Assembly: GCA_030655145.1 (NCBI GenBank)
Contig: JAURWD010000097.1
Coordinates: 1 to 35,654, forward strand
Length of the DNA stretch: 35,654 nt
From: Ferruginibacter sp.
GTDB lineage: Bacteria; Bacteroidota; Bacteroidia; Chitinophagales; Chitinophagaceae
Reading direction: 5' to 3'
The notes below the pieces were generated by a model. The model did no database searches. It was not told where the DNA came from and was given only the letters and a program-made list of their open reading frames with translations. Numbering within the stretch: the stretch's first letter is position 1; every line of letters begins with the position of its first letter. The position numbers and the translations under genes were made by a program. Shown piece after piece: positions 26,276 to 33,656 of the stretch.

Positions 26276-27166
26276 ATGTTTGTTTCAGCTATCGAAAAAA
26301 TTCAACAGTTTACCCGCCCGGTACACAGCATTTCGCGAACATATGGAGGCCTTATTCTTCCCGGCACGGCCACCATATTTTTTGTAAACAATGAAGGCGT
26401 TGCGATCACATGCAAACACGTCGCTGCCATGATACCTTCGGCAGAAAAAATAAATGCTGCTTACCAATCTTTCCGCCTGGAAAAAAACAGGATAGCCTCT
26501 GATGGCAAGCAACACAAACACCTAACAGGATTGGAGGTTAAATACAGTTACACGAAGGAAGCGACCATCCAACTCAAAAATACTTTCCTCAATTGCTTCG
26601 ACAAACTTGAAGCCATCACCACGCATATCCATCCGACGCTAGAGCTGGCTATACTCGTGTTCAAAGGTTTTAATAAAATTTTGTACAATGGCCACGCCAC
26701 GTTTGTAAATGAGCAGGCTTCTATCAAGCAGGGGCAATACCTCTGCCGCATCGGATTTCCTTTTCCTGAGTTTAATAATTTCCGGTATAATAAAGATGTT
26801 GATGATATTGAATGGACCAATACAGGAAACCCTAATTCTCCAAGTTTCCCTATCGATGGAATCATCACCCGCTTCCTGGGGGATGCGGGGGGTATTTCGG
26901 GGATAGAGATGAGTACGCCCGGATTGAAAGGCCAAAGCGGGGGGCCTCTTTTTGACACCAGCGGGCATATATATGGAATGCAATTTGCGACCAATCATTT
27001 GCACCTGGGTTTCGATTTGAGGGATAAGGAGATCATGAACAATGGAACAAAAACAAAGGTTTCCAACTACCCGTTTCTTCATGTTGGTCTTTGCGTACAC
27101 GTTGAAAGAATAAAAGCTTTTCTTCGGGAAAACGGCATTCAATTTACCGAGGCACCCATAAATTAA
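26276..27166 (+). CDS. Trypsin-like serine peptidase domain protein, cytosolic, unusual acidic residue
   Basis: A 296-residue protein with the chymotrypsin/HtrA-like protease fold and no signal peptide or PDZ domain. His48 lies in AITCKHVA, equivalent to the catalytic TAaHC-type His. Ser221 lies in GLKGQSGGPLFD, the classical G-x-S-G-G-P. At the place where the triad Asp normally stands (D-L-A-x-L), the sequence reads TLELAILVF with Glu123. If this alignment holds, the triad is His-Glu-Ser, which might lower activity. Similar domains are found in stand-alone stress or defence proteins, but no partner gene is next to it. It is followed 115 bases later by a small helical protein. Confidence 0.8.
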   Translation: MFVSAIEKIQQFTRPVHSISRTYGGLILPGTATIFFVNNEGVAITCKHVAAMIPSAEKINAAYQSFRLEKNRIASDGKQHKHLTGLEVKYSYTKEATIQLKNTFLNCFDKLEAITTHIHPTLELAILVFKGFNKILYNGHATFVNEQASIKQGQYLCRIGFPFPEFNNFRYNKDVDDIEWTNTGNPNSPSFPIDGIITRFLGDAGGISGIEMSTPGLKGQSGGPLFDTSGHIYGMQFATNHLHLGFDLRDKEIMNNGTKTKVSNYPFLHVGLCVHVERIKAFLRENGIQFTEAPIN

Positions 27167-27805: not shown

Positions 27806-28807
27806 ATGAAGAGAAAAGATTCCTTTGTTTTTTCCAGTGCGTCGGAACCCCATCGCATTAGGACAAAAGAAATACTTAAGAGCCATCCCCACATCAGGAA
27901 ACTGATCGGCAAAAATCCATTGACAATCTTCGCCATTATCGGCCTGGTTGCCTTGCAGGTAGGGTTAGCTTTTGCAGTTGCCGAACAATCCTGGTGGATC
28001 GTTATCGGGGCAGCCTATCTTATTGGCGCCTTTGCGGACCATGCGCTATTTGTAATGATCCATGAATGTGCACACAGGCTGTTGTTTAAGAAACCAGAGG
28101 CAAATCGCCTGGCAGGAATATTTGCAAACATTCCGCAACTTTTCCCAAGCTCTGTATCATTTGAAAGATATCATATTAAACACCATTCTTTCCAGGGAGT
28201 ACATGAACTAGATGCGGATCTTCCAAACAAATGGGAAGCAAAGCTGATCAACAATTATTTCATAGGCAAGGTTATCTGGCTTTTCTTTTACCCCATTTTC
28301 CAGGTTTTCAGAATCAGCCGTTTAAAAGAGATCAAACCATTTGATGGCTGGGTTGCATTGAACTGGGGTGTGCAGATCGCATTCATTGTCTTAGTTACTG
28401 TGTTTCTTGGTCCAAAAGCGATCATTTTTTTGTTGCTGAGTTTCTTCTTTTCAGTTGGTCTCCATCCATTAGGTGCTCGCTGGATACAGGAACATTATTT
28501 AACGCATGGTGAACAAGAAACTTATAGTTATTATGGTCCATTGAATAATGTCGCTTTCAATGTAGGCTTTCATAATGAACATCATGATTTCCCTTCTGTG
28601 CCCTGGAACAGGCTACCGCAGATCAGGGCTGGAGCACCTTCATTTTACAATACGCTTTTTTACCATAAATCATGGACCAAATTATTTTTTCGCTTCCTGT
28701 TTGACAAAGAGATTTCCCTCTTCTCAAGGGTCGTTAGAAATGACCGAGGCAAGGTTAAACTGACTGATGAATCAAAGCCTGATGTTGAATTGGTGGCTAT
28801 GAAGTAA
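27806..28807 (+). CDS. Fatty acid/sphingolipid desaturase resembling dihydroceramide delta-4 desaturase (DEGS)
   Basis: A 333-residue membrane di-iron desaturase. The three His boxes are HECAH (residues 86-90), HIKHH (123-127) and HNEHHDFP (256-263), with EHY at 229-231. Beyond the boxes, the N-terminal FSSASEPHRIRTKEILKSHP, the YHIKHHSFQG context, GLHPLGARWIQEHY, ETYSYYGPLNNVAFNVGFHN and the end KEISLFSRVVRNDRGKVKL follow, in order, the pattern I recall for animal and plant DEGS enzymes (about 323 residues), which put the delta-4 double bond into dihydroceramide. Four or more membrane helices lie at residues 38-85 and 150-220. Bacteroidota make sphingolipids, so a ceramide substrate is plausible, but an ordinary acyl chain cannot be excluded. 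A terminator-bearing leader precedes it and a strong terminator follows. Confidence 0.85.
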   Translation: MKRKDSFVFSSASEPHRIRTKEILKSHPHIRKLIGKNPLTIFAIIGLVALQVGLAFAVAEQSWWIVIGAAYLIGAFADHALFVMIHECAHRLLFKKPEANRLAGIFANIPQLFPSSVSFERYHIKHHSFQGVHELDADLPNKWEAKLINNYFIGKVIWLFFYPIFQVFRISRLKEIKPFDGWVALNWGVQIAFIVLVTVFLGPKAIIFLLLSFFFSVGLHPLGARWIQEHYLTHGEQETYSYYGPLNNVAFNVGFHNEHHDFPSVPWNRLPQIRAGAPSFYNTLFYHKSWTKLFFRFLFDKEISLFSRVVRNDRGKVKLTDESKPDVELVAMK

Positions 28808-32141: not shown

Positions 32142-33656
32142 TTATTGGATCACATAAGTATTATAGGAAGACTTTTGTACGAAAAAATCATAATCGATCC
32201 AGCTAAAGCCTCCATCACCCCACAAGGTTCCCCAGGAACTCATGACTTTATACGCATGTTTAGCATCATCATACCCGCAAATAAGAACCGCATGTGGTAA
32301 ACTTCCTGAGCCTGAATATGATTTCCAGATAAATCCGGGGCCGGCGCCAATGAAACTATTATCCGCGGTGATGTTAACAATTACAGGATGTTTGGTGGAA
32401 ATCATCGTTTTAATTGCAACTTCATCGGAATTAAGAATTGACGCATAGGAAGCGATTTTATATTGAGCGGCATTGGCAGTCTGTACTGCATCAGGCTGAA
32501 GAGAACAACCATTCGTACCGCTGTATGGCATGGCCTGCCAGGTACAAACACCTTGATTTTTTAATAGATTTAAGGCTAATGTAAAAGCTGTCCCAGAGCC
32601 ACAGTCACTCAATTTGGTTTGGTTATACACATATTCCGGGCTGAAAATATTTGAGTTGAATTCGTAACTGGTTGCATTGGTCCTATAATACTGTTCAATG
32701 GACCGGGCGCCGTAAGCAATTGCAAAAGCGACGCAACTTCCTTCACCGGCCTGGTTAGCAGGAGTCGGCGTTGTGAGTTGATACGAAGAAGGAACAGGCA
32801 CCGGTGAAATCACGGTTGTATTTACGGTTACCTGTATACTGCCTGAATTTGAATTGCCTGCCGCATCGGTTGCTGTTGCCGTCAGGCTATGAATACCTGC
32901 AGCGACGGTAGTTGTGTTCCAGGAAATACTATACGGCGCAGTATTATCTGTGCCTATCACGACACCGTCGACTTTAAAACCTACTGAGCTAACACCAATA
33001 TTATCACTGGCAGCCACTGCTACGGTAACAGTCGAACTAACTGAAGCACCATTGGTGGGTGAAGTAATAGCTACAGTTGGCGGGGTTATGTCTGCACCTG
33101 CAGGCGTATTGTATCCAACTTGTATGGTACTTATTTTTAAATTACCTGCAGCATCATTTGCCGTAGCGGTAAGTGTGTGAGTGCCGCTGGTAAGGCCGGT
33201 GGTGTTCCAGCTAAAACTGTAGGGAGCAAGGTTGTCGGTACCAATAACAATTCCATCTACTTTTAAGACAACCGAACTCACACCAACATTATCAGTTGCA
33301 GTTACCTGGACATTTACTGTGCTATTGACAGTTGCCCCTGTTGCAGGGCTAACAAAGCTAACGTTAGGAGTCGTCCGGTCCCTTCCTGTACTGCCGCCGC
33401 CCGCAGGTTTTGCATTTTCAGATTGTGCTTGGGAAAAATAATTACTGATGTTGTCAGCCATAAAGTCTGCAGAAGTCATCATTGGAACTTTTGCAACCAA
33501 AGCGGAATCGTCTGGCACCACACCAGCTAACCTTGAGTTGTTGGATGTAGCGTCAGCAGGTGTGTCGTTGAATGAGTTTTCTTTGTTACAGGAGGCGAGT
33601 AGTGCGGTTAGGGTTATACATAGAGTTACCCCTGCACGGAATGGAAATAATTTCAT
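32142..33656 (-). CDS. C1 (papain-like) cysteine peptidase lipoprotein with two Ig-like domains
   Basis: A 504-residue lipoprotein; the lipobox LLASC puts the lipid on Cys23. After a linker, two Ig-like domains of the Big_9 type follow (residues about 95-183 and 190-280), each with DNxGVSSVxxKVDGxVIGTDN and a DAAGN turn. The C1 domain starts near 290. Gln302 and Cys308 stand six apart as Gln19 and Cys25 in papain (QAGEGSCVAFA). The Cys that pairs with a disulfide in papain is Glu here. His455 lies in LPHAVLICGYDD. Where papain has Asn-Ser-Trp-Gly, this protein has SSWG (Ser473), so the usual catalytic Asn is replaced. Activity is therefore doubtful or altered. It has a divergent partner to the right. 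Confidence 0.88.
   Translation of the reverse strand: MKLFPFRAGVTLCITLTALLASCNKENSFNDTPADATSNNSRLAGVVPDDSALVAKVPMMTSADFMADNISNYFSQAQSENAKPAGGGSTGRDRTTPNVSFVSPATGATVNSTVNVQVTATDNVGVSSVVLKVDGIVIGTDNLAPYSFSWNTTGLTSGTHTLTATANDAAGNLKISTIQVGYNTPAGADITPPTVAITSPTNGASVSSTVTVAVAASDNIGVSSVGFKVDGVVIGTDNTAPYSISWNTTTVAAGIHSLTATATDAAGNSNSGSIQVTVNTTVISPVPVPSSYQLTTPTPANQAGEGSCVAFAIAYGARSIEQYYRTNATSYEFNSNIFSPEYVYNQTKLSDCGSGTAFTLALNLLKNQGVCTWQAMPYSGTNGCSLQPDAVQTANAAQYKIASYASILNSDEVAIKTMISTKHPVIVNITADNSFIGAGPGFIWKSYSGSGSLPHAVLICGYDDAKHAYKVMSSWGTLWGDGGFSWIDYDFFVQKSSYNTYVIQ

What the first reader, a model, noticed from the sequence alone, without database searches (positions are those of the whole stretch)
27806..28807. 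Bacterial homologue of eukaryotic dihydroceramide delta-4 desaturase
The protein resembles DEGS enzymes not only in the three His boxes but along its whole length, including the N-terminal PHRIRTKEILKSHP region, the ETYSYYGPLN segment before the third box, and the ISLFSRVVR end. Generic bacterial desaturases do not share these. Bacteroidota make dihydroceramides, usually thought to be saturated at carbon 4. A true delta-4 desaturase would let this bacterium make eukaryote-type ceramides, and its origin (transfer or ancestry) would be of interest. The similarity is judged from memory of DEGS sequences.
Basis: partly seen in the sequence, partly recalled or inferred. Interest (0 to 1): 0.72.

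Follow-up and report, generated by a model that had tools for sequence, protein, structure and literature searches.

The report
Bacterial cousin of human ceramide desaturase
A bacterium of the phylum Bacteroidota carries a gene that is related, from end to end, to the human enzyme that finishes ceramides by adding a double bond; its genome also holds starter enzymes for two ceramide-like lipids, so which lipid it acts on is a sharp, testable question.

Summary
The 333-aa frame at 27806-28807 matches Pfam Lipid_DES (sphingolipid delta-4 desaturase) at 44.8 bits, cut-off 23, plus FA_desaturase. It aligns with human DEGS1 (letters recalled) at 38% over 318 residues with 4 gap positions. Of 53 residues invariant in 35 aligned bacterial proteins, 48 are shared with recalled DEGS1, against 17-24 in four non-family proteins. 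It is a solitary, single-copy gene.

The family is not rare: 40 of 395 Bacteroidota genomes, 0 of 14 controls. The own genome encodes serine palmitoyltransferase (SPT) over its curated cut-off and the sulfonolipid enzyme CFAT/SulA. All 40 carriers have an SPT-like or CFAT gene (17 both, 17 SPT-like only, 6 CFAT only), against 257 of 355 non-carriers. I read it as a delta-4 desaturase of long-chain-base amides, acting on dihydroceramide, sulfonolipid or both. Activity and substrate are inferred, not shown.

In the tree, recalled human DEGS1 groups with four bacterial proteins (100/99), not with the acyl desaturases used as outgroup. New member of a known kind; no characterised bacterial member turned up in ten searches of an open-licence library.

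The parts
27806..28807 (+). DES-family desaturase gene, 333 aa, stop included
   Evidence: ORF; single match; Pfam
27818..27919 (+). Lipid_DES domain (PF08557), residues 5-38, the N-terminal stretch named for sphingolipid delta-4 desaturases
   Evidence: 44.8 bits, cut-off 23
27989..28633 (+). FA_desaturase domain (PF00487), residues 62-276
   Evidence: 90.9 bits, cut-off 29.7
28061..28075 (+). His box 1, HECAH, residues 86-90 (H86, H90 invariant in the 35-row alignment)
28172..28186 (+). His box 2, HIKHH, residues 123-127 (H123, H126, H127 invariant)
28463..28465 (+). H220, invariant histidine of GLHPLG, likely further metal ligand (role inferred)
   Evidence: invariant; shared with recalled DEGS1
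28517..28546 (+). ETYSYYGPLN family signature, residues 238-247
28571..28585 (+). His box 3, HNEHH, residues 256-260 (all five invariant)

Best explanation
The gene encodes an integral-membrane di-iron desaturase of the sphingolipid delta-4 desaturase (DES/DEGS) family. It most likely removes two hydrogens at C4-C5 of the long-chain base of an N-acylated sphingoid-type lipid, next to the C3 hydroxyl, giving a 4-trans double bond. In this organism the candidate substrates are dihydroceramide, made from the SPT product, and the sulfonolipid (N-acyl capnine), made from the CFAT product; I think dihydroceramide or both more likely than sulfonolipid alone. Shown here: family membership, intact His boxes, presence of SPT and CFAT genes. 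Inferred: activity, double-bond position, substrate, metal centre, electron donor.
For: Lipid_DES over cut-off. 38% identity over 318 residues, 4 gap positions, to recalled DEGS1; 48 of 53 family-invariant residues shared with it against 17, 21, 22 and 24 in four non-family proteins. Family profile: recalled DEGS1 366 bits, next non-family protein 42. In 30 non-carrier genomes that I picked (of 355) only 3 gave a match to the profile at E 0.001, partial and at 27-31 bits. Own SPT 667 bits with NF047600, cut-off 640, best PDB match Sphingobacterium-type SPT 546 bits; own CFAT best PDB match cysteate C-fatty acyltransferase 600 bits against 214 for SPT, with the diagnostic Lys (K280 by my count) where SPT has Ala (residue named in passages of PMC9304779). 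All 40 carriers have SPT-like or CFAT, against 257 of 355 non-carriers, Fisher p 8.5e-6.
Against: No experiment. The co-occurrence test is not corrected for relatedness and the background is already 72% (257 of 355). No pathway gene was seen near it: no SPT, CFAT, KBL or GNAT match at 1e-8 in the contexts of 120 loci, no neighbour family in more than 15 of 120. Of nine SPT-like proteins from carriers scanned, three (f1, f3) pass the SPT model's cut-off of 640, but six from f17, f24, f35 and f43 fit it best and stay below it at 486-505 bits, so SPT there is likely, not sure. Six carriers lack any SPT-like gene.
Confidence: 0.72

Rival explanations
1. Sulfonolipid desaturase only: the enzyme works on N-acyl capnine (or capnine) and leaves ceramides saturated.
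For: Six carriers (G146, G150, G249, G371, G387, G391) have CFAT and no SPT-like gene; their best matches to own SPT are at 37-39% identity and class as KBL (five) or CFAT (one). Two of the six, G391 and G150, are in the window's own family and their desaturases are 77% and 73% identical to the window's. The own genome has CFAT. A 4-ene sulfonolipid (flavocristamide A) and an unsaturated Salinibacter sulfonolipid are recalled, not read.
Against: 17 carriers have an SPT-like gene and no CFAT at E 1e-110. CFAT is in 139 of 395 genomes, and 116 of those 139 lack the desaturase.
Confidence: 0.18
2. C4-hydroxylase or dual enzyme like DEGS2: it makes 4-hydroxy (phytosphingosine-type) bases instead of, or besides, the double bond.
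For: Animal DEGS2 of the same family does both (recalled). The fold and His boxes are compatible with either (inference).
Against: No sequence test separating the two activities was made; nothing here favours it.
Confidence: 0.12
3. An acyl-chain desaturase or hydroxylase of another lipid that merely shares ancestry with DES.
For: The FA_desaturase superfamily is diverse; no activity data. NCBIfam gives no match over a cut-off; its weak best hits are GntB, CrtW and DesA at 28-32 bits.
Against: Lipid_DES domain, 48 of 53 shared invariant residues with recalled DEGS1, tree placement. The own genome has seven other PF00487 matches, so acyl chains can be served by other enzymes.
Confidence: 0.1

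Closest known systems
Eukaryotic sphingolipid delta-4 desaturase family (DES; human DEGS1, DEGS2), Pfam PF08557 + PF00487
   Same: Both domains over cut-off, full-length alignment, three His boxes, ETYSYYGPLN, C-terminal R308 and R311
   Different: 38% identity; N-terminal MGSRVS of DEGS1 (myristoylation signal, recalled) absent; bacterial host; substrate untested; possible sulfonolipid substrate
Bacteroidota sphingolipid pathway (SPT, PDB 3a2b/8guh)
   Same: Own genome has SPT over the curated cut-off with a GNAT-family gene next to it
Sulfonolipid pathway (SulA/CFAT, PDB 7u7h, 28eh)
   Same: Own genome has CFAT with the diagnostic Lys
   Different: No desaturase in the pathway papers as far as seen: 'desaturase' 0 times in PMC9304779, twice in PMC11211663, in an introduction passage on eukaryotes
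Solved membrane di-iron enzymes: Chlamydomonas FtsHi-complex chains 8xks_K and 8xqw_M, AlkB (8sbb, 8f6t), stearoyl-CoA desaturase 4zyo
   Same: Overall fold, TM-score by query 0.60, 0.63, 0.47, 0.46, 0.32; that the two Chlamydomonas chains are desaturase-like is my inference
   Different: 16-18% identity; no PDB relative by sequence at E 1 or by profile beyond chance-level hits of 12 bits

Membership tests
Sphingolipid delta-4 desaturase (DES/DEGS) | N-terminal Lipid_DES domain over curated cut-off | tested here: met
   44.8 bits, cut-off 23; recalled DEGS1 74.3 bits
Sphingolipid delta-4 desaturase (DES/DEGS) | FA_desaturase domain with three intact His boxes | tested here: met
   90.9 bits; HECAH, HIKHH, HNEHH
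Sphingolipid delta-4 desaturase (DES/DEGS) | Groups with DEGS rather than with acyl desaturases | tested here: met
   one recalled eukaryotic sequence only, outgroup split 89/94 (not starred), long outgroup branches
Sphingolipid delta-4 desaturase (DES/DEGS) | Host makes a sphingoid-type base | tested here: met
   Gene level only: own SPT over cut-off, CFAT; no lipid data
Sphingolipid delta-4 desaturase (DES/DEGS) | Converts dihydroceramide to ceramide (4-trans) | not testable with these tools
   Needs expression and lipid analysis
Acyl-lipid/acyl-CoA desaturase | NCBIfam desaturase equivalog over cut-off | tested here: not met
   DesA model 27.7 bits against 500; no model reached its cut-off
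DEGS2-type C4-hydroxylase | C4-hydroxylated product | not testable with these tools
   No product data
Sulfonolipid (capnine) desaturase | Acts on sulfonolipid | not testable with these tools
   Only indirect: CFAT-only carriers 6 of 40

The most novel reading that the evidence does not exclude
The Bacteroidota enzymes form a bacterial branch of the DES family that desaturates both ceramides and sulfonolipids, according to which base the host makes, and the eukaryotic delta-4 desaturase arose from, or was passed to, one of these bacterial lineages (the four f24 proteins L002-L005, 43-49% identical to recalled human DEGS1).
Probability: 0.25. Interest if true: 0.82.

Novelty: new member of a known kind. 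Interest (0 to 1): 0.56.

Why it matters
If true, some bacteria can make the 4-sphingenine-type ceramides, or 4-unsaturated sulfonolipids, that are usually credited to eukaryotes. A bacterial sulfonolipid triggers development in a choanoflagellate (passages of PMC3463246), and the double bond is a known switch of ceramide bioactivity in animals (recalled). It also gives a simple bacterial system for an enzyme family for which I found no solved structure, and makes the origin of the eukaryotic desaturase a question for a tree.

Tried and rejected
Rejected: 'generic acyl desaturase'; 'no sphingolipid pathway in the genome'; 'plasmid- or virus-borne gene' (no plasmid match at 1e-5 with the divergent relative L002; 29 viral pattern hits, none a relative); 'part of a lipid operon' (the window's nearest genes are a trypsin-like protein, a GSDH-like protein, a hydrolase and a large frame without Pfam match). 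Led nowhere: PDB sequence and profile searches, Rfam (0 matches), promoter scan (6 found, 6.8 expected; terminators 4 found, 2.0 expected), NCBIfam for the GNAT next to SPT (0 matches at 1e-20).

Literature: searches listed no paper that I could recognise from title and abstract start as describing a characterised bacterial delta-4 desaturase. Several lists were capped (20 of 30, 20 of 205, 20 of 3,248, 20 of 55), and the library is open-licence PubMed Central only. PMC6148460, a review of sphingolipid biosynthesis in man and microbes, has 0 word-start uses of 'desaturase' in the held text. Passages of PMC12075507, PMC8311935, PMC9324278, PMC11765627 and PMC5591296 gave no double-bond position for a bacterial base.

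A first reading that the 217 SPT hits might be mostly KBL was dropped: in the 23 carrier genomes proteins classed as KBL fall at 1.2e-86 or weaker, below the 1e-110 limit.

Caveats on counts: the AU test did not reject bacterial DES as one clade with DEGS1 outside (p 0.08), so nesting of the eukaryotic enzyme inside the bacteria is not shown; only its grouping with L002-L005 is well supported. The alignment and tree hold the window, 5 named relatives and 29 of the other 39 carriers; 10 carriers and 75 of the 80 named loci were left out. By crude gene calling the desaturase was found in 118 of 120 context loci; the misses are L149, hidden by an opposing frame, and L110.

Full report
WHAT IS THERE. 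The frame 27806-28807 (+) encodes 333 aa and is the only match to itself at E 0.001 in the 5.3-Mb, 340-contig assembly. Pfam gives FA_desaturase (90.9 bits, cut-off 29.7) and Lipid_DES, the N-terminal domain named for sphingolipid delta-4 desaturases (44.8 bits, cut-off 23). NCBIfam has no model over cut-off. The gene stands alone, about 640 bp after a trypsin-like gene and about 830 bp before a large frame without a Pfam match. No Rfam match lies in the window.

WHO ELSE HAS IT. The one scan of named genomes allowed found 293 relatives among 312 pattern hits and kept the best 80, 71-89% identical, in Ferruginibacter, Chitinophaga, Sediminibacterium, Puia, Flavisolibacter, Mucilaginibacter and others, many unnamed; the window is therefore most likely from Chitinophagaceae near Ferruginibacter (inference). 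A Lipid_DES search over 395 Bacteroidota genomes drawn evenly gave 40 with a match, all over the cut-off, in 25 of 170 genera; 0 of 14 control genomes. Other phyla were not searched apart from those controls. The neighbourhood is not conserved: no neighbour family occurs in more than 15 of 120 loci, and no SPT, CFAT, KBL or GNAT match at 1e-8 lies in those contexts.

IS IT A DES-FAMILY ENZYME? An alignment of 35 proteins (the window and 34 others at 41-86% identity to it) has 53 invariant residues, among them histidines of all three boxes and H79, H220 and H230. Recalled human DEGS1 shares 48 of the 53; four non-family proteins, added to the alignment the same way, share 17, 21, 22 and 24. Two of the four (L213, L214) are own-genome PF00487 proteins; the other two (L221, L222) are the best profile matches from non-carriers and were not scanned with Pfam. 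With the profile of the 35, recalled DEGS1 scores 366 bits and the best non-family protein 42. In 30 of the 355 non-carrier genomes, picked by me across families, the profile found three partial matches of 27-31 bits. So there is a wide gap and I saw no intermediate. The recalled DEGS1 letters were checked only by Pfam, where they give Lipid_DES 74.3 and FA_desaturase 91 bits.

TREE. With 35 bacterial members, recalled DEGS1 and four outgroup proteins (IQ-TREE, LG+C20+F+G4), DEGS1 groups with four proteins of family f24 (L002-L005) at 100/99, with or without the outgroup. L002 is 48.7% identical to recalled DEGS1 and 42.2% to the window protein; for L003-L005 the difference is slight (43.1-43.3% against 42.3-42.9%). 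Family f24 holds a second type, L027-like, in other carriers including G077 and G069 (79% and 61% to L027), which does not group with DEGS1. The split of DES from the outgroup has 89/94, outgroup branches are very long, and a tree with all bacterial DES together and DEGS1 outside is not rejected (p-AU 0.08). The grouping argues for transfer between a Bacteroidota lineage and eukaryotes, or deep shared ancestry; direction is open.

PATHWAY IN THE GENOME. Three strong AOS-family matches were found, a fourth was marginal. L033 is SPT: 667 bits with NF047600, cut-off 640, best PDB match SPT of the 3a2b/8guh type, 546 bits, followed on the same strand by a GNAT-family gene. L034 is cysteate fatty acyltransferase (CFAT/SulA), the sulfonolipid starter: PDB CFAT 600 bits, SPT 214, with Lys at the position that separates SulA from SPT (K280 by my count; Lys281 against Ala in passages of PMC9304779). 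L032 is KBL, 686 bits with TIGR01822, cut-off 493. So both lipid classes could be started.

CO-OCCURRENCE. Over the same 395 genomes, 217 have an SPT-like match and 139 a CFAT match at E 1e-110. Of 40 carriers, 17 have both, 17 SPT-like only, 6 CFAT only, 0 neither; of 355 non-carriers 257 have at least one (Fisher p 8.5e-6). Taken singly: SPT-like 34 of 40 against 183 of 355 (p 3.7e-5), CFAT 23 of 40 against 116 of 355 (p 0.003). These p-values ignore relatedness. The 17 SPT-like-only genomes were searched with TIGR01825: each has a protein nearer to own SPT (46-50%) than to own KBL or CFAT, with Ala at the diagnostic place; a homologue of the GNAT gene stands next to 16 of these 18 SPT-like genes (none seen beside L159 and L175). 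Six proteins scanned from f17, f24, f35 and f43 fit the SPT model best but stay under its cut-off; three from f1 and f3 pass it. The six CFAT-only carriers were searched again at 1e-30: their best match classes as KBL in five and CFAT in one. In the window's own family (14 sampled genomes) all have CFAT, 5 an SPT-like gene, 6 the desaturase, so the gene is patchy even among relatives; two of the six are CFAT-only, with desaturases 77% and 73% identical to the window's.

STRUCTURE. AlphaFold2 on the 35-row alignment gives mean pLDDT 85.7, pTM 0.86. Best PDB folds are two chains of Chlamydomonas FtsHi complexes, AlkB and, weakly (E 0.17), human stearoyl-CoA desaturase; the six best viral ones are mostly named desaturases, of giant viruses. 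This fits a membrane di-iron desaturase or hydroxylase and does not discriminate further.

HOW IT PROBABLY WORKS. A membrane scaffold holds a di-iron centre with the conserved histidines (inferred from the class); with O2 and an electron donor it removes hydrogens at C4-C5 of a long-chain base, next to the C3 hydroxyl. Dihydroceramide and N-acyl capnine are alike around that bond and differ at C1 (hydroxyl or sulfonate). That genomes with only one of the two starter enzymes carry the gene suggests that the enzyme reads the C3-C5 region and the amide and tolerates different C1 groups. This is inference.

WHAT IS KNOWN. Ten literature searches listed no characterised bacterial delta-4 sphingolipid desaturase that I could recognise; lists were partly capped. 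Passages seen of sulfonolipid papers and a review name no desaturase of sphingolipids or sulfonolipids in bacteria (PMC9304779; PMC11211663; PMC10191378, where 'desaturase' occurs only in plasmalogen references). Black Sea sphingolipids vary in unsaturation, without 'desaturase' in the text (PMC11334938 passages). RIF-1 is a capnoid with a 5-hydroxy group (PMC3463246 passages). That flavocristamide A and the Salinibacter sulfonolipid carry a double bond near the hydroxyl is recalled and was not confirmed in the passages seen. Pfam's own model already reaches these bacterial proteins, so their membership can be had from any domain scan; what I add is the pathway split and the tree position.

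Noticed in passing
L002-L005 (genomes G191, G089, G262, G187): Four DES proteins of family f24 group with recalled human DEGS1 in the tree and have HFISEHY and IPGSRLP segments, near the HFIAEHY and IPGKSLP of recalled DEGS1; other f24 carriers have a different type.
   Followed up: partly
G254:C158, G219:C210, G179:C1: CFAT-like matches lie in open frames of 1113-1171 aa, so the acyltransferase seems fused to further domains in families f45, f42 and f40.
   Followed up: no
L033:356-1474 and homologues in L158, L160-L174: A GNAT-family gene stands next to SPT in the own genome and next to 16 of 18 SPT-like genes in f17, f35 and f43 carriers; candidate N-acyltransferase (inference), Pfam Acetyltransf_1 at 25.5 bits, cut-off 20.7.
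   Followed up: partly
L009 (G253): A second, divergent type in the window's own family: 56% identical, with a 4-residue insertion near residue 60 and an apparent N-terminal extension that may be a start-codon artefact; it stands apart in the tree.
   Followed up: no
window 32142-33656 (-): Papain-family protease with bacterial Ig domains.
   Followed up: no
window 26276-27166 (+): Trypsin-like peptidase domain protein just over its cut-off (29.4 against 27.6 bits), without further known domain.
   Followed up: no
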